Shown: positions 4,277-25,049 of the stretch, piece after piece
Numbering within the stretch: the first letter of the stretch is position 1
How the letters are laid out: each line of letters starts with the position of its first letter
NCBI GenBank assembly: GCA_015183035.1
Contig: JACZZP010000014.1
Location: 620,001 to 684,000 of the forward strand
Direction: 5' to 3'
Origin: Meloidogyne chitwoodi
Taxonomy: Eukaryota; Nematoda; Chromadorea; Rhabditida; Meloidogynidae
Length of the DNA stretch: 64,000 bases
The notes under the pieces: model-generated
What the model saw: the letters and a program-made list of their open reading frames with translations, nothing else
The model's database searches: none
Told to the model about the DNA's origin: nothing
Position numbers and translations under genes: made by a program

Positions 4277-5030
4277 TTTTATCCCATATTTTCTAATAAA
4301 TCCTTTTACTTTACTGCCGAGAAGTGCTTTCAAAACAGTTAACACTATTATCAGAATGATTATGTTATCTCTTAAGTACTTTACACAGCAACATAAAATA
4401 TTAGAACATTAACGAATAACTTTATTAGAAGATGGGGATTTTGTTTTAGTGTTCATTTTTGTTAGAATGATTATAAAGTAAAGATTTGAATTATTTCACC
4501 TTAAATACTCTGATACATTATTTGATATATTAAGCTTCACTTACTTAAAGATAATTCATCTGAATGTATAATAAATTTTGCTCATATACTCACAAAAGAA
4601 GAGAAGCATTGTAAAAGAGGAGGAGGAGGGGAGAAGAGGAGAGGATATGCATCCTCCTCCGAATGCATATCCTCTCAACTTCCCACCTTCTTTTACAATG
4701 CTTCTCTTCTTTTGTGAGTATATGAGCAAAATTTATTATACATTCAATGAATTATCTTTAAGTAAGTGAAGCTTAATATATCAAATAATGTAACAGAGTA
4801 TTTAAGGTGAAATAATTCAAATCTTTATTTTATAATCATTCTAACAAAAATGAACACTAAAACAAAATCCCCATCTTCTAATAAAGTTATTCGTTAATGT
4901 TCTAATATTTTATGTTGCTGTGTAAAGTACTTAAGAGATAACATAATCATTCTGATAATAGTGTTAAGTTTTGAAAGCACTTCTCGGCAGTAAAGTAAAA
5001 GGACTTATTAGAAAATATGAGATAAAAAAA
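4277..5030. mobile_element. 754-bp palindromic foldback element, copy A
   Basis: Left and right halves are inverted copies around position 4653/4654, so coordinates pair to a sum of 9307. For example CTCATATACT at 4581 pairs with AGTATATGAG ending at 4726. Similarity runs to the outer TTTATC...GATAAA ends. The only central spacer is the asymmetric purine/pyrimidine block around GATATGCATCCTCC and GAATGCATATCC. Two ORF-like frames here come from the palindrome and are not called genes. The element is a sister of the palindrome at 5290-6225. Confidence 0.85.
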
Positions 5031-13842: not shown

Positions 13843-16800
13843 ATGAATCTTCGTTTATTATTATTTATTATTATATTATTATTATTTAAATATTTATTTA
13901 TTTATAATATTAATTATTTTTTTATTTTATTATTTTGGAAGAAAAAAATTAAAAAAAAAATAATAATTATTTATTATTTAATTATTATTTTTTTATTATT
14001 TTTTATTAAAATGACAGAAGAATTAAATAATGAAAAACAAGTTATTTTATTTAATTTAAATATATATTTAATTAATTTAAAGTTAATAAATGCTTGGTCT
14101 TCAAGTTTAAGAATTGGTTGGAGTTCTTGGTCTGAATGGAGTAAATGTCCTTTTAATAATAATAAAGTTTGTTTTTTAATTATTATAATTTAATTAAATT
14201 TATATTTTAATTAATAATAATGCCTAAAGGATAATTGTTTTTTTTGTTTTTTATTCTAAAAAACTGCGATTTATTTTTTGTTTTGTTTTTTATAAAATGT
14301 AAAAAAATAATTATTTTTTGTTTTGTAAACTTGATTATTTTATTTTTTATAATTTTTGTCTGTAATATGTTGGTATATAAATAAAAATATTTATTTTAAA
14401 ATTATTTAAAAAATATAAATGTTTTATTTAATAATAATATTTTTAAATATTTTAATAATTAAATCAACACCACAATATTATTATTCTTCTTCTTCTAGTA
14501 GTGAAGAATATAATAATGGTGGTAATGGATGGCCACCTATTGGTAAATTAATTAATTTAATTTAATTAAATAAAAATTAGGAAGTAATACTTGGTCTTCT
14601 TCTTCAATAATAACTTCTTCCTCCTCTTCTTCACATTGGCCTTGGAAAGAATAAAAAGATTAATTAATTAATTAATTTATTTTGTATAAATTGTGATTTG
14701 TAATATTTTTGTGAAAATAAAAATTAAATAATATATTTTTAAATAATTAAATAAATTAAAATAATTATTTTAGAAAAAATGTAATGAAAGATTAAATATT
14801 CAATTTCAACTAAGAAGATGTTTAGATAAAAATTGTTCTGAAGGTCCTTCTTCAAGATATCGTTTATGTTCTAATTTAAATAATTTAAATAATAAATGTT
14901 TATTATTAAATAATAGAACATGTCAAATATTAAATTATAATAATAAAGTTTAAATTAATTATTTAATTAATTTAAATTAATTATTTTAGTCTGATGGATT
15001 ACCTTGTTATTTGAATAATTCATTAAATAATAAAGGAATATGTTTTAAAGGTAAATGTCAATCTGTTGGTTGTGATAAAATTATTGGAAGTTTAAAAAGT
15101 AAAGATCAATGTGGAATTTGTGGAGGAAATGGAAGTAGTTGTTTTAATAAATTATTTAAATGGAAAGAAAATGGAAATTTTAGTAAATGTAAAGGAAATT
15201 GTGGAAATAAAGGTTTAAATTAATTTAAATTAATTATTTAATTAATTTAGAATATATATGTATAATTAATTAATTTATTTAATTAATTAATTTAATTAAA
15301 TTAATTATTAATTAAATTATTTATTTATTAATTTAATTTAATTTAATTTAAAATTAAAAGGTATTTCTGTTTCAATTTCTTTTTGTTTTAATATTTTAAC
15401 AAAACTTTATGTTCCTGATAAAATGTGTGAAAAACAAAAAAGACCTAGACCAAAAATAAGAAAATGTTCTTCTATTATTATTTGTAAAAATATGTAAGAA
15501 TTATTTAATTTATATTTTAACCTTTCCTATATTTTATTTAATAATAAAATATTATATATTTTTCTCTCTTTTCTTTTACAAATAATTTTATTTTAATAAT
15601 TCTTTTAAAATAAATAAATAAATAAAATCAAAAATTAATTTAAACTTTAATTTTATTTTATTAAATTATATATTTATTTATATTTTAACATTTTTAAGTT
15701 TTTTTATTTTTATTTTCTTTAAAAATAAAAACAAAAATAATATTCTCTAGAGTATCATCATCTCATCAATTTTAAATTCTTCTTTAAAAAATACTACTAA
15801 TATTTTTTATTTTATTTTTATTTAAATATATTTATAAAAAATGTTTTTAAAATATTTATTAAATATAATAAATATTAATTTTGTTTATCTTCTTTTATTA
15901 AAAGAGTAATTAATTTAAATTAATTAATTTAATTATAATTTTTAAAAAAAGATGGCAAACAAATAATTGGAGTGATTGTTCTGTTAGTTGTGGATTAGGA
16001 GAACAAAAAAGAAAAGTTTATTGTGCAGAAATAGATAATAATGGTTATTTAAATAAACAATTAAATGATAAACATTGTTGGCATTCAAAAAGACCAGTTT
16101 ATTATTTTTTAAAATAAATTTAAAAATAAATTTAGATAGAAATTCGTCAATGTAATAATATTGGTTTATGTCCAGAATGGGCAATTGGTGATTGGGGTAA
16201 ATGCCAAAAAACAATTTGTGGTCGTGGTATACGTTCTAGACCAGTAGAATGTAGAAAAGAAGGAAAAAGATTACCTGATTGGCAATGTCTTTTAAATAAA
16301 AATAAATTAAAACCACAAATAAATCAGCCATGTTGGACTGGAATTTCTTGTTTATTAGAAGAAGAACAAAATAATAGGTAATTATTTTTATTAATTTAAA
16401 TTTAATTAAAAATTAAAAATATTTTTCTCTTAAAAATGCCAAAATATATTCTTCCTTTTTTTTATTATTTTATTTTTTAAATAAAAAAATCTCTTCAAAA
16501 TTGTAAAAATGACCAAAACCTTTTTTTGTTATTTCCTTCTTTTTAAGTACACAAAAGAAGTATTTTTATTTATTTTTGATAAATTATATAAATAAAAGTT
16601 TATTTGACCATTTTATTTTTTTAAAAAGTTATTCCCTAAAGAATTTATTTAAAAATATATTTTAACCTCTCTTTCATTTTTAATTATTTTTATTTAATTT
16701 AAAAAGAAAAGTCTAAAATATATTCTCAAAATAAACAATTAAAAAAAAAGACCAAAAGTCCAATTAAGCTTTTATAAAAATATTATTTTTCTTCTGTTTT

Positions 16801-19800
16801 TAAAAGGATTATTTATTTATTTATTTATTTTTATTTTTTTAAGCTTTTTCTTCTTTTTATTTTTTAATTCCAAAATAAACTATTTTCTTATTTTTAATTA
16901 AATATTAATTTTAAAAAATAATAAATAAATATTTTAATAAATTTTCCCTTTTTTTATAATTATAAAATATTGGCAAAACATTCTTTTATTGTTCTTTTTA
17001 TTTTTATTTTTAAAGTTTATTTCTTTTAAAGTATTTATCAAGTATTTATTTATTTATTTAATATAAAAATGTTTTTCTTCTATTCATTTCCTTCTTTAAT
17101 TAATTTATTATTATTATTTATTTTTATTTTTCCCTCATTATCTCAAAATGATTGGAAACATCGTCATAGTGAAAAATATATAAAAGAACCAAAACAACAA
17201 AATAATAATAATTTAAATAATAATGGGTAAGAGAAAAAAGAAATGGTTTTTATTAAAAAATAAAAATAAAATTGGTATCAAATTAAAACAAATATTTAAA
17301 ATTATATTTTAATTAAAATTTATTTAAAGATTAATTGAAGAACAACAAAAAATATTAAATTATTATTCAGACGAAGATGATAATTTAGATAATAATAATA
17401 ATATAGAAAATAATGAAGAACAATTTTTAAAAGAAGATATAAATAATGGGCAAAAGCCAAGGTATTTTATTTAAAAATATTTATTTTATTTTAATTTTTA
17501 AAAAGATTTTATGTAAGTATTTGGAGTGAATGTTCAACTACTTGTGGACCTGGTATTAAATCTAGGCAAGTAGAATGTATGGCAAATCAAATAAAATTAA
17601 CTGATTATGAATGTCAAGGTAAAGAATATTTGGTGCTTGTCCAGGTTATGAGTCCAATGAAAATATATGAGTCCAATGGAAGTTTTGTTAAGCAATTAAA
17701 GTCTCGTTTAAGTGATTACGAGAACGGGTCCCGGTCCCAGTTTTCGGGTCCAATTTACAGTTTCTGGAAGAAAACTGGTATGAAACTGTAATGAAACAGA
17801 AACCGAGAATTCCAGGTTTACTTAAAAAACTGGAAAAGACCGGGACCCATTCCCATAATTACTAAATGAGACTTTAATTGCTTAACAAATTTGTTTGGAC
17901 TCATATATTTTTATTTGGACTCACATATTTTTATTGGACTCATAAATGTTCATTGGACTAATAAACTGGAAAAGCACCAAGAATTTTTAAAAATAATTAT
18001 TTATATAACATTTACTAAACATTTACAGTATTTTATTCAATTTTTTCTTTAAATTAATAAAGCTAAAAAATAAGTTAGCTAATGCTTACGACCATACCGC
18101 GTTGAAAGCACGCCATCCCGTCCGATCTGGCAAGTTAAGCAACGCTGCGCCTCCTTAGTACTTGGAACGGAGACGTCCTGGGAATCGGGGGTGTCGTAAG
18201 CATTTTTTAAAAATTATTTTAATAATTTTAAAAATATAAACAAATTTATTTCAACTAATAAATAAACAAATAATTTAACAAATAAATACATTTTTTTAAA
18301 TTAATTGTAATATATTCTTTTCTCTTCTAAACAAATTTAAATATTTTTGTATTTAATTACTGCATTAATTCAAAAACCTATTAAATTATTTATTATTAAA
18401 AATTAATTAATTAAATACTTTTGTTGTTTTCATTTTCATTTTTTGGTGGGTTCTTTACTTTTATTTTTCTTCTTTTTATGTTTTGTTTTTAATCGTTCTT
18501 TTATTGAATTATTATTATTATTATCAGATTTAGATTCTTTCTTTTCTTCTTCACTATCATCATCATTACTAACATAACTTCTTGTTGCTATCCAAATAGA
18601 TGAACTACTTTGTTGAGTTTTTTTACATTTTTGATAATTATCTTCTGTACGAACTGGAAAAACAACATCTTTGTTTATTCCTGAAAGTGTATCATATCCA
18701 ACTTTATTTGGATCTACATGTTCTTTAGGCCATTCTACAAAAGAAAGAATAATTATTTAAAAATAATAAAAAAGAATTTAAATAATACTTTTAAAATATT
18801 TTGAAGCATTTTTTATTTGAGCTCTTTTTTGCTTTGGTGTTGGTTTATATTGACTTCTTTTTGACTAAAATAATAATATAAAATTTAAAAAGAAAATACC
18901 CCACAGCATTGAATAACAATAGAAATAGTAATAATTGCTAGCTTTGATAAAAAGAATATTGTAGACAAACACAAATTGCTAAAGAAGAAAAACATTTTTT
19001 TTAATTAATTGAAGGAAATGAATAAAATAAAACTTTAAAAGAAAATGTTTTTATATTATTTAATTATTTATTTTTTTAAAGGACAACCTCGTCCTATTCA
19101 ATTTCGTCATTGTCAATTAATATCTTGTTCTTCTTCTACAATAACACAACAAATAATAGAAGATCAAAATTCTTTATTAGTTAATAAAATAAATAATTAT
19201 AGATGGAAATATAGTAATAAATGGACAATTTGTTCATCATCTTGTTTAGGAGGTTTATAATTAAAAAAATAAATTAAAAAATATTTTAATTTAAAAAAGG
19301 TAAACAAAGATTATCTTTACTTTGTATTGAATTATTAACTGGAAGATCTGTTTCTTATTTAAAATGTGAAGATGAAAATAGTGGTGCTGGTAAAAAACCT
19401 GAAGAATTAATTCGTCAATGTAATCAACAACAATGTCCTCCTAATTGGGAAGTTTGTTTGTTTTTTATTTTTTTTTAATTTAATTTTTATTTAAAAAGGT
19501 CTCTGAATGGTCTATTTGTTCACATTTATGTGGTGGAGGTATTAGAACTAGACAAATAAGATGTGTTCAATTATTATCAAATAAAGATGGTTCTAATACT
19601 CTTTTATTACCTGATATTAAATGTTTTGGACAAAAACCTGGAAATGAAGAACCTTGTGGATTAGTAGATTGTGCACCAGAATGGAAATTTGGAAATTGGG
19701 TTATTTTAAATATTATTTTTTAATTTTAAAAAAATAATATTAAGAGTCAATGTTCAGCAAATTGTGGTTTAGGTGAACAAAAACGTTCTATTAATTGTAT

Positions 19801-22290
19801 TCAAAGAGATTCACTTGGTAAAATAGAGGAAAGAAAAATAGAAGAATGTACTATTTTAATTGGAGAAATGCCAATAATTAAACAAAAATGTAATTTAGGT
19901 AATTTTTAAATAATTTATTAAATAATTTATTTGAAGGTAATTGTCCAATTAATTTAAAAGAAAATATAACTTTACAACAATCATTTATTTATTCTGAACC
20001 TTTTAATAATAATAATTTAATTAAAGAAAATGAAAAATCTGCAAAAGATCAACCTTTAGGTGAAAATGAAGAAAATAAAGATTATGAAGAAGAAGAAATT
20101 GAAGAAGAAAATAAAAATAATAATTTTAAAAATAAACAAAGAAAATTAACTTTACAAATTGGTGGAATTGCTAATTTATATGAAGGGTATAATTAATTAA
20201 TTTAATTAATTAAATTATATTTTTAGAACTTCTGTAAAAGTAAAATGTCCAATTAATAAATCAATTATTGGTAATAATAATAAAAGAAATATTATTTGGA
20301 CAGTAAATGGATATCCACTTAGACAAAGTTGTAAGTAAAATATTTATTTTAAATTAAATTATTTTAAATAAAAAAATAAAATAAAAAAATAGCTCGTTTA
20401 AAAATTTCTCAAAATGGAGCCCTTAGAATATTTAATTCACGTCAACATGATGCGGGTATTTATGCTTGTTATAATAATAATAATAATAAACAACTTGGAA
20501 ATGTTACACTTAAATTTAAAATAAATAAAGAATTAATAAAAGAAGAAAATAATAATAAAATAATTAAAAATACTAATTATAAATATTCTGGAAGAAAATT
20601 AATTCAAGTTTGTTTTTTTTAAATAAATTAAATATATTTATTTTGAAAAAAAGAAAATACGTAATTCTTTATATAATATTGGTCAATATTCACTTTATGA
20701 TAAAATAGCCTCTGCAGATCCAAATCAAATAAATATTAAATTTACATTTTCTAATTGGAGTGATTGTGAACAATTTAATTGTTTTGAAAATGAAGGAATT
20801 CAAGTTTTTATATTTTTTAAATTTTAAAATTTAATTAAAAAAAAGACAAGGCAATTATTTTGTTCAATATTTTTTAATAAAGAATATGCAAATTTAAAAG
20901 ATTTAAAAATCTGTGAATTATTTGGTATTTCTCGTCCTTTAATTAAACAAAAATGTTTAAATAATAAATGTCCACATTGGGAAAGTGGAAAATGGAATGA
21001 ATGTTTAAATTCAAAATGTATTAAACAATTTACTTCTTTACAAAAAAGACAAGTTTTATTTAATTTAATTATTTTAATTAAATTTAAATTAAAAGGTAAA
21101 ATGTATTTATGATAATAAAACAGAAGCTAATCCAATTCTTTGTTTAAAAAAAATTAAACCAAAATTAAAAAGAGAATGTCAAAATGGTAAATAAATAATT
21201 AATTAATTTAATTAATTAATTATTTAAAAAGTAAATTGTTTGGCTAATTGGAAACCTTCAATTTGGAGTAAATGTAGTAAAAAATGTGGTGATGGAGGTG
21301 TTCAAATGAGAATATTAAATTGTATTTGGAATGAAAATAAAAAACCTGCTGGTTCTAACTGTAATCAAATAAAAAGGCCAATAACTATAAAAGCTTGTAA
21401 AATTAAAAAAAAATTACCTGAATGTTTTTTTGAAAATGAAAAAGAAGAAATTAAAGAAAAAGAAGAAGAGAAATGTTTGTTTATTTTAATTAACTAGCGT
21501 AGAAGGTCGCCCTTCGGGCGTCCTTCTACGCTAGCAAAAATAAACACAAAAAACTGAAATAATCAGATCATTAAAGTAATCATATTACAAAATAAACATT
21601 TCTAAAGAACAAAACAAAAACCTGAATAAACAAACTGCAACAAAATAATTGGTCCAAACATTCCTAATCAAAACACATACATTGCTATAACAATAATGTC
21701 CGCCATAAAGCCACCGCAGCCACAACCAAACGGCGTAACCTAAGCAGTGCTTGGAATTTTCGATTTTGCTCATACTCATACATCATACCGACAAAAAAAA
21801 TTGCTCATACATCATACTCATACTTCATACCTGCCATTTTTTCCCTCATACTCATACATCATACCTATGTATGAGTATGAGGTATGAGTATGATTTTGGT
21901 ATGACCTTCCAAGCACTGAACCTAAGCCACAACCACTGCAAGCCGACCACCACCACTAAAGAAAAAATAAGCGGTTTATATAGTATCCAACTGTCAAAAA
22001 CTACTATAAAAAACCCATTTTCTCCCCAATCATTTGCTATAAAAGGACAGACACACAAACATTCTCAATTATATAATAAGATTAATTATTATTTTTTAGT
22101 ATTATTTCCTTTACGTTTATGTGAAGATAAAAGCCGTTTTTGTGATATTCTTCGATTATTTCAAACGTTTAATTATTTTAAATAATTTTAATATATATTT
22201 TTAATTTTAAGATGTGATCAACCTAAAATTAAAGAACAATGTTGTTTTAGTTGTAAAAAATTAATTGAAGATTTAAATAAAAATAAATAA
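13843..22290 (+). CDS. madd-4: MADD-4/punctin-like secreted ADAMTS-like protein, long isoform
   Basis: Exons: 13843-14040 (start uncertain), 14083-14166, 14774-14947, 14990-15212, 15361-15493, 15952-16096, 16136-16377, 17506-17618, 19082-19252, 19300-19451, 19499-19699, 19745-19898, 19937-20186, 20227-20330, 20393-20607, 20654-20803, 20846-21052, 21096-21186, 21232-21474, 22100-22166, 22212-22290. All junction phases agree, giving about 1131 residues. Order: hydrophobic N-terminus, TSP1 repeat (WSSWSEWSKC), ADAMTS-type Cys-rich module (CGICGGNGSSC), TSP1 repeats (NWSDCSVSCG, SIWSECSTTCG, SEWSICSHLCG, NWSQCSANCG), an Ig domain (about 740-845), more TSP1 repeats, and a C-terminal PLAC domain (CDILRLF...QCCFSCKKL). 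Punctins are extracellular organisers of acetylcholine and GABA receptor clusters and guidance cues. The N-terminal hydrophobic exon is odd, with two hydrophobic stretches split by lysines, so the true first exon may differ. Confidence 0.88.
14419..14654 (+). CDS. small secreted Ser-rich peptide, nested in a madd-4-like intron
   Basis: Exons 14419-14542 and 14581-14654 (38-nt GT-AG intron) encode 65 residues. A clear signal peptide (MFYLIIIFLNILIIKSTP) is followed by a Tyr/Ser-rich mature part with YYYSSSSSSEEY, GGNGWPPIG and a SHWPWKE end. It lies wholly inside the 607-nt intron between the first TSP1 exon (ends 14166) and the next exon (starts 14774), on the same strand. I recognise no family. 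It could be a nested gene, an alternative terminal exon set, or a chance open frame. The intron plus signal peptide argue for a gene. Confidence 0.45.
17069..22290 (+). CDS. madd-4: MADD-4/punctin-like protein, short isoform from an internal first exon
   Basis: Exon 17069-17226 starts with its own signal peptide (MFFFYSFPSLINLLLLFIFI...SLSQ). Exon 17330-17461 is acidic and Asn-rich (ILNYYSDEDDNLDNNNN). The chain ends in phase 2 with AG and joins exon 17506. The long isoform's exon ending at 16377 also ends in phase 2 with AG, so both chains fit the same acceptor. The shared part starts at the SIWSECSTTCG TSP1 repeat; the predicted protein is about 828 residues. In C. elegans, short MADD-4B comes from an internal promoter and serves inhibitory and excitatory synapses differently from the long form. 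The 0.69-kb interval 16378-17068 would hold that promoter here. Confidence 0.75.
17624..17986. mobile_element. MITE with long inverted repeats beside a splice donor
   Basis: The left end AATATTTGGTGCTTGTCCAG and the right end (reverse complement AATTCTTGGTGCTTTTCCAG) are inverted. They are followed on both sides by copies of ATGAGTCCAATGAA and AAGCAATTAAAGTCTC. Internal GGGTCCCGGTCCC / GGGACC segments give more hairpins. The element starts about 5 nt after the donor at 17619 and has no coding capacity. Confidence 0.8.
18084..18201 (+). rRNA. 5S ribosomal RNA
   Basis: The 118-nt sequence starts GCTTACGACCATACCGCG, includes GCCATCCCGTCCGATCTGGC and TTAGTACTTGG, and ends GTGTCGTAAGC with the terminal stem paired. 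A T run (ATTTTTTAA) follows as a Pol III terminator. It lies in sense orientation inside the 1.46-kb madd-4-like intron 17619-19081. It differs from the copy at 23711 at one base (C here at 18148, G there). Confidence 0.97.
18436..18995 (-). CDS. unknown secreted or membrane-anchored Lys-rich protein, antisense within madd-4-like intron
   Basis: Exons 18995-18900, 18864-18789 and 18734-18436 (minus) give 156 residues with matching phases. An N-terminal hydrophobic segment (about residues 4-30, ending IVIQCCG) suggests a signal peptide or anchor. It is followed by SKRSQYKPTPKQKRAQ, a YFK-KWPKEHVDPNKVGYDTL stretch, an acidic DDDSEEEKK patch and a poly-Lys tail (KHKKKKNKSKEPTKK). I do not recognise the family. 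The gene sits between the 5S gene and the next host exon, transcribed against its host. Confidence 0.65.
21490..22080. repeat. dispersed repeat block in the last large madd-4-like intron
   Basis: It begins with a near-perfect hairpin CTAGCGTAGAAGG...CCTTCTACGCTAG at 21494-21534. A CCGCCATAAAGCCACCGCAG/CAACCAAACGGCGTAACC segment (about 21690-21745), CATACTCATACATCATAC simple repeats with an inverted GTATGAGTATG copy, and 21900-22080 follow. The last part is an inverted copy of 55955-56190 (shared GTAGTTTTTGACAGTTGGAT when reversed). Insertion expanded this intron to 625 nt. Confidence 0.75.
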
Positions 22291-23409: not shown

Positions 23410-25049
23410 ATGATATTATTATTAAAATATTTATTATTTAAAATTGTTATTTTATTTTATTTTTTAATTTCTTCATTATTTTCATTTAAATCTGTTTGTG
23501 ATTTTCCTTTATTGGATGATAGACAAGGTTGTCAACGTGGACAAGAAAATTTAGAAAATAAAAATAAAGAACAAATATTTAATTGGTTTTGTGATCCAGA
23601 ATCAATTATTTCAATGAGTGAAGGTTTTTTTAATTATTATTTAATAATTAATATCTCTATTTTATTCTAACATCACCTTATGTTAAAATATTTATTTTTA
23701 TTAAAAAAATGCTTACGACACCCCCGATTCCCAGGACGTCTCCGTTCCAAGTACTAAGGAGGCCCAGCGTTGCTTAACTTGCCAGATCGGACGGGATGGC
23801 GTGCTTTCAACGCGGTATGGTCGTAAGCAATGGAAAAGTTATTTCTTTTATTTATAAATAAGAAGGGAATAAAATAGAGATTAAAATAAAAAAGATATTT
23901 TAATTAATTATAGTAACAGCATTAGGAGAAACAATAAATAAATTAACAACAATAAATAGTGATAATTGTGTTTGTGAAAATAATAAAAAGAATTTATCTT
24001 CTTTAAATAATAATTATTGTTGGTATTATTTTGGTTTTGGATTTTTAAGAAAATTAAATTTAGAAAATGAAATTATTATTAGGTAAAAATAAATTAAATT
24101 AAAATATATTATTTTTAAATTAAAGTTCTTCTAATCAATGTAAAATAAAATTAAATAAAACAACAAATATTAAAAAATCTTTAAATTTAGAAAAGTAAGT
24201 AAATTAATTTAAAAATAAATAAATATTTATTTTTTAGTAATATAACAAATTATGGTAATAATTTTGTAAATATTCTTAGAGAACGTTGGAAAATAGGTAA
24301 TTGTGGTGAAGATATAATTATTCTTTTTATACAAATACCACCGGTAAATTAAATTAAAATAAATAATTTTATTTTTTTAATTATTTAAAAAAAGATGATT
24401 TTTGTATCTTTTGGTTATTTAATGAAACAACAATTAGAAATAAATAAAATAAATAAATTAATTAATCAAACTAATTTACAATTATTTAAAAATACAAAAC
24501 CTCAATTTAGAATTTTATCTAATTTTATTGAAAATATTTTAATTTTATTAAATAATAATTTAAATATTAAAAAACAAAAAAAACAATTTACAATAAAAAG
24601 AAATGATGAACAAATAATAATAACAACACGTAATCATATTCCTTTATGGGCTTGGTTTGTTTATTACTAATTATTTTAATTAAATTATAAAAATAAATAT
24701 TTTAAACAAATAAAAAATAATTTTAAATTTAAATTAAAAAGGGCAATTTTTGGTTTATGTGGAATTGCATTTTTATTAATGGCTTTAAGTCTTTTTGCTA
24801 TTAGAAGTAAAACAAGAAGAGGTTTACAAGGAAATAAATTAAAATATCAAAGAAATAATAATAATAATAAAGCAATAATAGCTAGAAGATATTGGAAAGA
24901 AAGAGGTAATTTATTTATTTAATTATTATTTATTATTTAATTAAAAAGAAGAACAATTACAACAAACACCCCAAACATATGTTAATCTTGTTCAAATGCT
25001 TATGCCTCATCCAAAATATTCACCTACAAATTTACAACAACAATTTTAA
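23410..25049 (+). CDS. MOLO1-like single-pass membrane protein with TPM domain
   Basis: Exons 23410-23623, 23914-24082, 24126-24194, 24238-24343, 24395-24654, 24742-24905 and 24949-25049 give 360 residues. Layout: signal peptide (ILFYFLISSLFSF), an extracellular domain with a DPESIIS start motif (about 61), conserved Cys pairs, and the TPM hallmark ERWKIGNCGEDIIILF (about 163-178). One TM helix (FGLCGIAFLLMALSLFAI, about 275-293) leads into a basic, Asn- and Gln-rich cytoplasmic tail. This matches MOLO-1, an auxiliary subunit of levamisole-sensitive acetylcholine receptors; other nematode TPM paralogues are equally possible. The first intron contains a 5S rRNA gene in reverse orientation. Confidence 0.7.
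23711..23828 (-). rRNA. 5S ribosomal RNA
   Basis: This is a 118-nt reverse-strand copy, identical to 18084-18201 except for one base. The terminal stem (GCTTACGAC / GTCGTAAGC) and the internal control region are intact, and a T run follows its 3' end on the minus strand. It lies in the first intron (23624-23913) of the MOLO1-like gene, antisense to its host. Confidence 0.97.

What the first reader, a model, noticed from the sequence alone, without database searches (positions are those of the whole stretch)
16378..17618. madd-4/punctin homologue has an internal first exon with its own signal peptide
The exon at 17069 encodes a start and a strong signal peptide. Its chain ends in phase 2 with AG, exactly like the upstream long-form exon ending at 16377, so both fit the same acceptor at 17506. 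C. elegans makes long and short punctins from separate promoters, with different roles at acetylcholine and GABA synapses. The same layout here would mean the two-promoter switch is conserved into plant parasites, and 16378-17068 is the candidate internal promoter.
Basis: partly seen in the sequence, partly recalled or inferred. Interest (0 to 1): 0.75.

Follow-up and report, generated by a model that had tools for sequence, protein, structure and literature searches.

The report
Root-knot nematode punctin's short-form exon
A root-knot nematode gene for a protein that helps organise nerve-muscle synapses has a second, internal starting exon, so it can probably make a long and a short secreted protein as C. 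elegans does; the layout is real, but the same two-form arrangement is already known in other worms, one of them a plant parasite.

Summary
A 21-exon punctin/MADD-4 (ADAMTS-like) gene lies at 13843-22290 with every splice phase joining. Exon S1 (17069-17226) starts with ATG and a signal-like stretch, joins S2 (17330-17461), and S2 ends in AG and joins 17506. S1 is not a chance frame: a Meloidogyne incognita protein model starts with it (30 of 44 aligned residues identical; score 159, best of 2000 shuffles 57).

One correction. S2 is symmetric, so the long exon ending at 16377 can also join 17330. The M. graminicola long form does so, and 17 of 17 nematode records with a readable third-TSP-to-linker joint (of 52) have a 29-83 residue linker.

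The internal promoter is plausible but unproven: its one UNC-30-type site is at chance level, and internal trans-splicing could give the same mRNA. Two madd-4 isoforms with separately tested upstream regions are already published in the plant parasite Bursaphelenchus xylophilus. New member of a known kind, modest interest.

The parts
13843..16377 (+). Long-form-only exons E1-E7: first TSP1 repeat, ADAMTS-type cysteine-rich part, further TSP1 repeats; exons 13843-14040, 14083-14166, 14774-14947, 14990-15212, 15361-15493, 15952-16096, 16136-16377
   Evidence: phases join; Pfam; M. graminicola P0001 aligns along it
16378..17068 (+). Interval upstream of S1, candidate internal promoter or outron; 12% GC; one TAATCC on the minus strand at 16806-16811; acceptor-like sites giving exon starts at 17016 and 17032
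   Evidence: promoter role inferred, not shown
17069..17226 (+). S1: short-form-only first exon, signal-like start plus basic segment QNDWKHRHSEKYIKEPK; phase 2 out
   Evidence: conserved in M. incognita P0002
17330..17461 (+). S2: acidic linker exon, phase 2 in and out; probably in both forms
   Evidence: present in the M. incognita short-form model and the M. graminicola long-form model
17506..17618 (+). E8: start of the first TSP1 repeat common to both forms
19082..22290 (+). Common exons E9-E21: TSP1 repeats, Ig (I-set) domain, more TSP1 repeats, PLAC-like end, stop at 22290

Best explanation
The locus is a single-copy punctin/MADD-4 (ADAMTS-like) gene that makes two secreted proteins. The long form runs E1-E7, S2, E8-E21 (about 1175 aa). 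The short form starts at its own exon S1 inside the long intron and runs S1, S2, E8-E21 (828 aa). It lacks the N-terminal TSP repeats and cysteine-rich part but keeps the shared TSP repeats, Ig domain and PLAC-like end. Shown: the exon structure, the conservation of S1 in M. incognita, and the family. Inferred: that the long form includes S2, that S1 mRNAs start from a promoter in 16378-17068 and are probably trans-spliced at 17016 or 17032, and that UNC-30/PITX- and UNC-3/COE-type factors switch the forms between neuron types as in C. elegans, with the short form acting at GABA synapses.
For: The gene model joins in phase throughout, with TSP1_ADAMTS and I-set above cut-off. M. graminicola P0001 is 71% identical over 96% of the short-form query. 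M. incognita P0002 starts with S1+S2: S1 30 identical of 44 aligned, S2 19 of 31, E8 32 of 38; S1 score 159, maximum of 2000 shuffles 57. The only strong match to P0002's first 75 residues in the window lies at S1 (E 6e-10; next best 0.38). 11 of 14 matches of P0002 in the genome, the nine strongest among them, lie at this locus. The long form carries S2: adding S2 raises the alignment to P0001 from 4464 to 4583, and 17 of 17 records with a readable third-TSP-to-linker pattern, out of 52 nematode records, have linkers of 29-83 residues, whereas a direct 16377-17506 join would leave 14. 7 of 52 nematode records start with a strongly hydrophobic stretch shortly before the first shared TSP repeat. 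COE and PITX-class homeobox genes are present in the genome.
Against: There is no transcript or promoter data. The relatives are mostly gene predictions, and P0002's own C-terminal end departs from the others, as if read in a wrong frame. S2's similarity to M. incognita is within shuffles. The S1 donor is weak (4.2; this gene's other donors 3.7-10.3). A chance UNC-30-type site is expected in a third of simulated intervals, and the best COE match has 2 mismatches. Acceptor-like sites are common: 6 of the 10 AG sites in 16700-17069 score within this gene's acceptor range, so those before S1 are not special. S2 inclusion is not favoured by the Globodera long form (1285 with S2, 1289 without) and hardly by Heterodera (2207 against 2201). 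Only hydropathy stands for a signal-peptide prediction.
Confidence: 0.85

Rival explanations
1. There is no internal promoter. One upstream promoter makes the whole pre-mRNA, and a spliced leader joined to the acceptor at 17016 or 17032 instead of the far 5' acceptor gives the short mRNA, so the switch is made by trans-splicing.
For: Two acceptor-like sites 53 and 37 nt before the ATG score 7.4 and 5.3, within this gene's own range of 3.7-10.2. Trans-splicing is general in nematodes (recalled). A trans-spliced mRNA looks the same whichever promoter made it.
Against: Such sites are common here (6 of 10 AG sites in 16700-17069). In C. elegans and B. xylophilus, DNA of 1.9-4.4 kb and about 3 kb upstream of the short-form ATG drives its own reporter pattern (PMC11385328; PMC9427778).
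Confidence: 0.12
2. The long form joins 16377 straight to 17506, and S1+S2 are both short-specific.
For: The phases allow it. The Globodera long form aligns marginally better without S2 (1289 against 1285).
Against: The M. graminicola long form contains S2; none of the 17 readable long-type records has a linker shorter than 29 residues.
Confidence: 0.1
3. S1 is a chance signal-like frame in an AT-rich intron.
For: About 2% of simulated introns of this size hold such a frame (51 of 3000), and the signal part of S1 scores as intron-like.
Against: Coding bias after the signal (0 of 3000 reach S1's total) and conservation with M. incognita.
Confidence: 0.02
4. E1-E7 is a separate upstream gene that ends at the in-frame TAA just past the donor (AGG TAA at 16376-16381), and the punctin gene proper starts at S1.
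For: The frame does stop there.
Against: Any phase-2 exon ending AG|GTAA gives that stop; 17 of 17 readable long-type records run through this joint.
Confidence: 0.03

Closest known systems
C. elegans madd-4 / Ce-punctin, long (MADD-4L) and short (MADD-4B) isoforms from alternative promoters (PMC7260190, PMC11385328, PMC6920096: passages seen)
   Same: One gene, two secreted forms with separate first exons and a shared body; the short form has its own promoter region.
   Different: Promoters, cell types and receptors were tested there; here only sequence. No record named C. elegans was retrieved by my searches, so S1 was not compared with MADD-4B.
Bursaphelenchus xylophilus Bxy-madd-4A/B (PMC9427778: abstract, introduction, about the first two fifths of the text and passages seen)
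   Same: A plant-parasitic nematode with two isoforms, each with its own signal peptide, and different reporter patterns for the DNA upstream of each start codon.
   Different: Isoform B is 402 residues shorter than A (723 against 1125) and is described as lacking an N-terminal TSP1; here the short form would lack E1-E7 and be about 347 residues shorter. Not a root-knot nematode.
M. incognita A0A914KVL1 cluster (P0002, 817 aa) and M. graminicola Mgra_00003195 (P0001, 1160 aa)
   Same: Orthologues: one is a short-form model that starts with S1+S2, the other a long-form model that contains S2.
   Different: Each was retrieved as one form only; the source names shown do not mention punctin.

Membership tests
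Punctin/MADD-4 (ADAMTS-like) | Multiple ADAMTS-type TSP1 repeats | tested here: met
   PF19030 236 bits, cut-off 23.8, 10 stretches
Punctin/MADD-4 (ADAMTS-like) | Ig domain between TSP groups | tested here: met
   I-set 28.4 bits, cut-off 23.7
Punctin/MADD-4 (ADAMTS-like) | No metalloprotease domain | tested here: met
   no peptidase among the 10 Pfam families listed at E up to 1
Punctin/MADD-4 (ADAMTS-like) | ADAMTS cysteine-rich part in the long form | tested here: inconclusive
   PF19236 17.9 bits, cut-off 21; the motif GCDKIIGS..CGICGG has counterparts in the 4 long forms of alignment A1
Punctin/MADD-4 (ADAMTS-like) | C-terminal PLAC domain | tested here: inconclusive
   PF08686 13.9 bits, cut-off 26.4; the six-cysteine end aligns with 6 of the 10 other sequences of A1, the other 4 lack it
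Two-form punctin (L and S) | Separate short-form first exon with its own signal peptide, joining the shared body in frame | tested here: met
   (hydropathy only, no signal predictor)
Two-form punctin (L and S) | Separate promoter for the short form | not testable with these tools
   needs transcript starts or a reporter; the TAATCC count is at chance
Two-form punctin (L and S) | Different neuron types express L and S; ACh versus GABA receptor clustering | not testable with these tools
   no expression data
Two-form punctin (L and S) | Receptors UNC-40 and NLG-1 present | tested here: inconclusive
   Neogenin_C search found nothing here and nothing in the 14 control genomes; neuroligin not searched

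The most novel reading that the evidence does not exclude
In root-knot nematodes the long/short punctin choice is made not by two promoters but by where the spliced leader joins one pre-mRNA (17016/17032 or the far 5' end), and the conserved basic tail of S1 (QNDW[KR]HRHSE.YIKEPK) gives the short form a matrix- or receptor-binding handle that the long form lacks.
Probability: 0.1. Interest if true: 0.6.

Novelty: new member of a known kind. Interest (0 to 1): 0.35.

Why it matters
It extends the long/short punctin architecture to root-knot nematodes with sequence evidence, separates the short-specific exon (S1) from the probably shared linker exon (S2), and shows which splice junctions and intervals to examine. 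A working switch would let the C. elegans model of excitatory versus inhibitory synapse identity be tested across the phylum. It is not a surprise, given the published two-isoform gene in B. xylophilus.

Tried and rejected
Motif evidence for the promoter: one TAATCC in 16378-17068, but 33% of 2000 simulations hold at least one, and the window as a whole has fewer than shuffles (24 against a mean of 47). A published study of nematode unc-47 elements also found TAATCC no more often than in reshuffled sequence (PMC4447282, passages). COE sites: best has 2 mismatches, no chance control made. Shared blocks between the long and short upstream regions: the 20 of 31 direct-repeat families shown look like AT-rich low complexity to me. 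DNA search of the interval against the own genome: besides itself, scattered matches of 66-87% and one of 25 nt at 100%, 40 of 109 candidates scored; not informative.

Neogenin_C and OAR family searches found nothing, but nothing rang in the controls either, so they say nothing. The first homeodomain search gave Q50 genes among its best matches; the PITX-class gene was recognised only after a second search. The second protein search (profile A1) listed no Caenorhabditis; the third, from Loa loa, listed C. angaria, C. bovis, C. japonica, C. auriculariae and an unnamed Caenorhabditis-like record (P0057), but no row named C. elegans. PDB profile search: the 60 of 92 hits shown are Ig-containing proteins and two single-TSP constructs. 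Structure prediction was not run. In print: 'madd-4' with 'Meloidogyne' found 0 papers, and the ADAMTS-like/punctin plus root-knot/plant-parasitic search gave only the B. xylophilus paper as relevant among the 10 listed of 1,988; open-licence papers only.

For the 52-record count I took the nematode-named records and three others that looked nematode-like (P0018, P0057, P0079). Left out: the non-nematode records and the other unnamed ones (P0038, P0040, P0063, P0074, P0078, P0085). 35 of 52 gave no readable third-TSP-to-linker pattern (short forms, truncated models or divergent repeats); by eye P0007, P0008 and P0046 carry a linker. P0018 joins the cysteine-rich part directly to the linker. 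My anchor script misplaced the anchor in some truncated or divergent records, for example P0003, P0019 and P0039; P0039's linker was read.

Full report
What is there. The window lies in an unnamed 47.5-Mb genome of 30 contigs. Protein relatives place it in Meloidogyne: 71% identity to M. graminicola over 96% of the query and 60% to M. incognita over 91%. From recall this fits M. chitwoodi, but the species was not tested. On the plus strand, 21 exons at 13843-22290 join in phase into an 1131-residue protein if 16377 is joined to 17506, or 1175 residues if S2 is included. Pfam finds ten ADAMTS-type TSP1 stretches and an I-set Ig domain above cut-off, and below-cut-off ADAMTS cysteine-rich and PLAC matches. 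Of 14 matches of the M. incognita orthologue in the genome, 11, the nine strongest among them, lie at this locus; the 3 elsewhere are weak (E 3e-6 or worse).

S1, 17069-17226, starts with ATG and a hydrophobic stretch ending in FPSLS, then QNDWKHRHSEKYIKEPK and an asparagine-rich run, and ends in phase 2. S2, 17330-17461, is 132 nt long, phase 2 in and out, ending in AG. So the phase claim is right. In DNA about 80% AT, signal-like frames come cheap: 51 of 3000 simulated introns of this size contain one, and S1's signal part itself scores as intron-like (-24.4 bits). Two further tests are passed. After the signal its codons look like those of the gene's other exons (1.15 bits per codon; E2-E21, on which the model was trained, 0.66-1.69), and 0 of 3000 simulated introns reached S1's total. 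And the M. incognita model P0002 starts with the same exon: FP.LSQNDW.HRHSE.YIKEPK...NNNGLIEEQQ; S1 scores 159 against at most 57 in 2000 shuffles, while the low-complexity S2 scores 57 against at most 70 and proves nothing alone.

The correction. Because S2 is symmetric, the long exon ending at 16377 can join 17330 as well as 17506. The M. graminicola long form reads ..CWTGIPC NEKENNER-LIEKQNQIL..KPK-FYVSKWSECS, that is E7, S2, E8. Of 52 nematode records, 17 show the end of the third TSP repeat and the linker to the next one; their linkers are 29-83 residues. Our direct join would leave 14 residues, the join through S2 58 (counted). In Ascaris, Caenorhabditis, strongylid and Parastrongyloides records a linker, in the first three groups with a W[NS][DE] motif, follows the third TSP repeat. 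The Heterodera and Globodera long forms do not discriminate (2207 with S2 against 2201 without; 1285 against 1289). I therefore read S2 as common to both forms and S1 as the only short-specific coding exon.

Two forms across nematodes. Seven of 52 nematode records (P0002, P0006, P0012, P0015, P0049, P0067, P0070) have a strongly hydrophobic stretch (KD 2.5 or more) near their start, with the first shared TSP repeat beginning within about 100 residues of that start; they come from Meloidogyne, Panagrellus, Aphelenchoides, Strongyloides, Steinernema and Pristionchus. One (P0067) is partial, the Steinernema and Pristionchus linkers differ from S2, and most are gene predictions. In C. elegans the long and short isoforms come from alternative promoters; the short form clusters GABA receptors and the long form acetylcholine receptors, and UNC-30 directly activates the short form through a TAATCC site (PMC7260190, PMC11385328, PMC6920096: passages). 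In B. xylophilus, madd-4A (1125 aa) and madd-4B (723 aa) have separate signal peptides, and about 3 kb upstream of each ATG drives different reporter patterns in C. elegans (PMC9427778). So conservation into plant parasites is already published.

The promoter. 14 of this gene's 20 long-form introns are 38-62 nt and one is 148; the one holding S1 is 1128 nt, and four others are 458-1463 nt. The interval holds one TAATCC (16806), which 33% of simulations also show. The genome has a COE gene and a PITX-class homeobox gene with RRQRTHF and VWFKNRRAKWRKRE (L025), so the regulators may be present. An M. hapla unc-47 element works in C. elegans D-type neurons and does so less consistently when its UNC-30 motif is changed (PMC4447282, passages). 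All this makes a conserved switch plausible and shows none of it here. Two acceptor-like sites lie 53 and 37 nt upstream of the ATG, but 6 of 10 AG sites in 16700-17069 score in the same range. If the mRNA is trans-spliced there, 5' RACE would not find the promoter, and internal trans-splicing of one long transcript remains a rival.

Verdict. A real, conserved short-form first exon in a root-knot nematode punctin; reader right on the exon, probably wrong on the shared acceptor, unproven on the promoter; new member of a known kind.

Noticed in passing
18084-18202 (+) and 23710-23828 (-): Two 5S rRNA genes, one inside the punctin intron E8-E9, the other, by eye, inside the next gene downstream.
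   Followed up: partly
18439-18995 (-): Apparent nested antisense gene of three exons inside punctin intron E8-E9, about 156 aa with a signal-like start and an acidic/basic tail; one other, weak match in the genome (36%, E 4e-4) and no Pfam match above cut-off.
   Followed up: partly
14419-14654 (+): Apparent nested two-exon gene on the same strand inside punctin intron E2-E3, 65 aa, signal-like start, serine-rich, no Pfam match, no other match in the genome. By my reading it has its own stop and its first exon is out of phase with E3, so it is not a third punctin first exon.
   Followed up: partly
17620-18080 and 21490-21540: Inverted-repeat, probably mobile, elements inside two long punctin introns (read by eye).
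   Followed up: no
13843-14040: The long-form first exon encodes two hydrophobic stretches; from FIYNINYFFI onwards it is matched by M. graminicola P0001, so the true long-form start and signal are unclear.
   Followed up: partly
protein P0018 (unnamed, Strongyloides-like): A long-type record that joins the cysteine-rich part directly to the S2-type linker, skipping TSP repeats: perhaps a third isoform.
   Followed up: no
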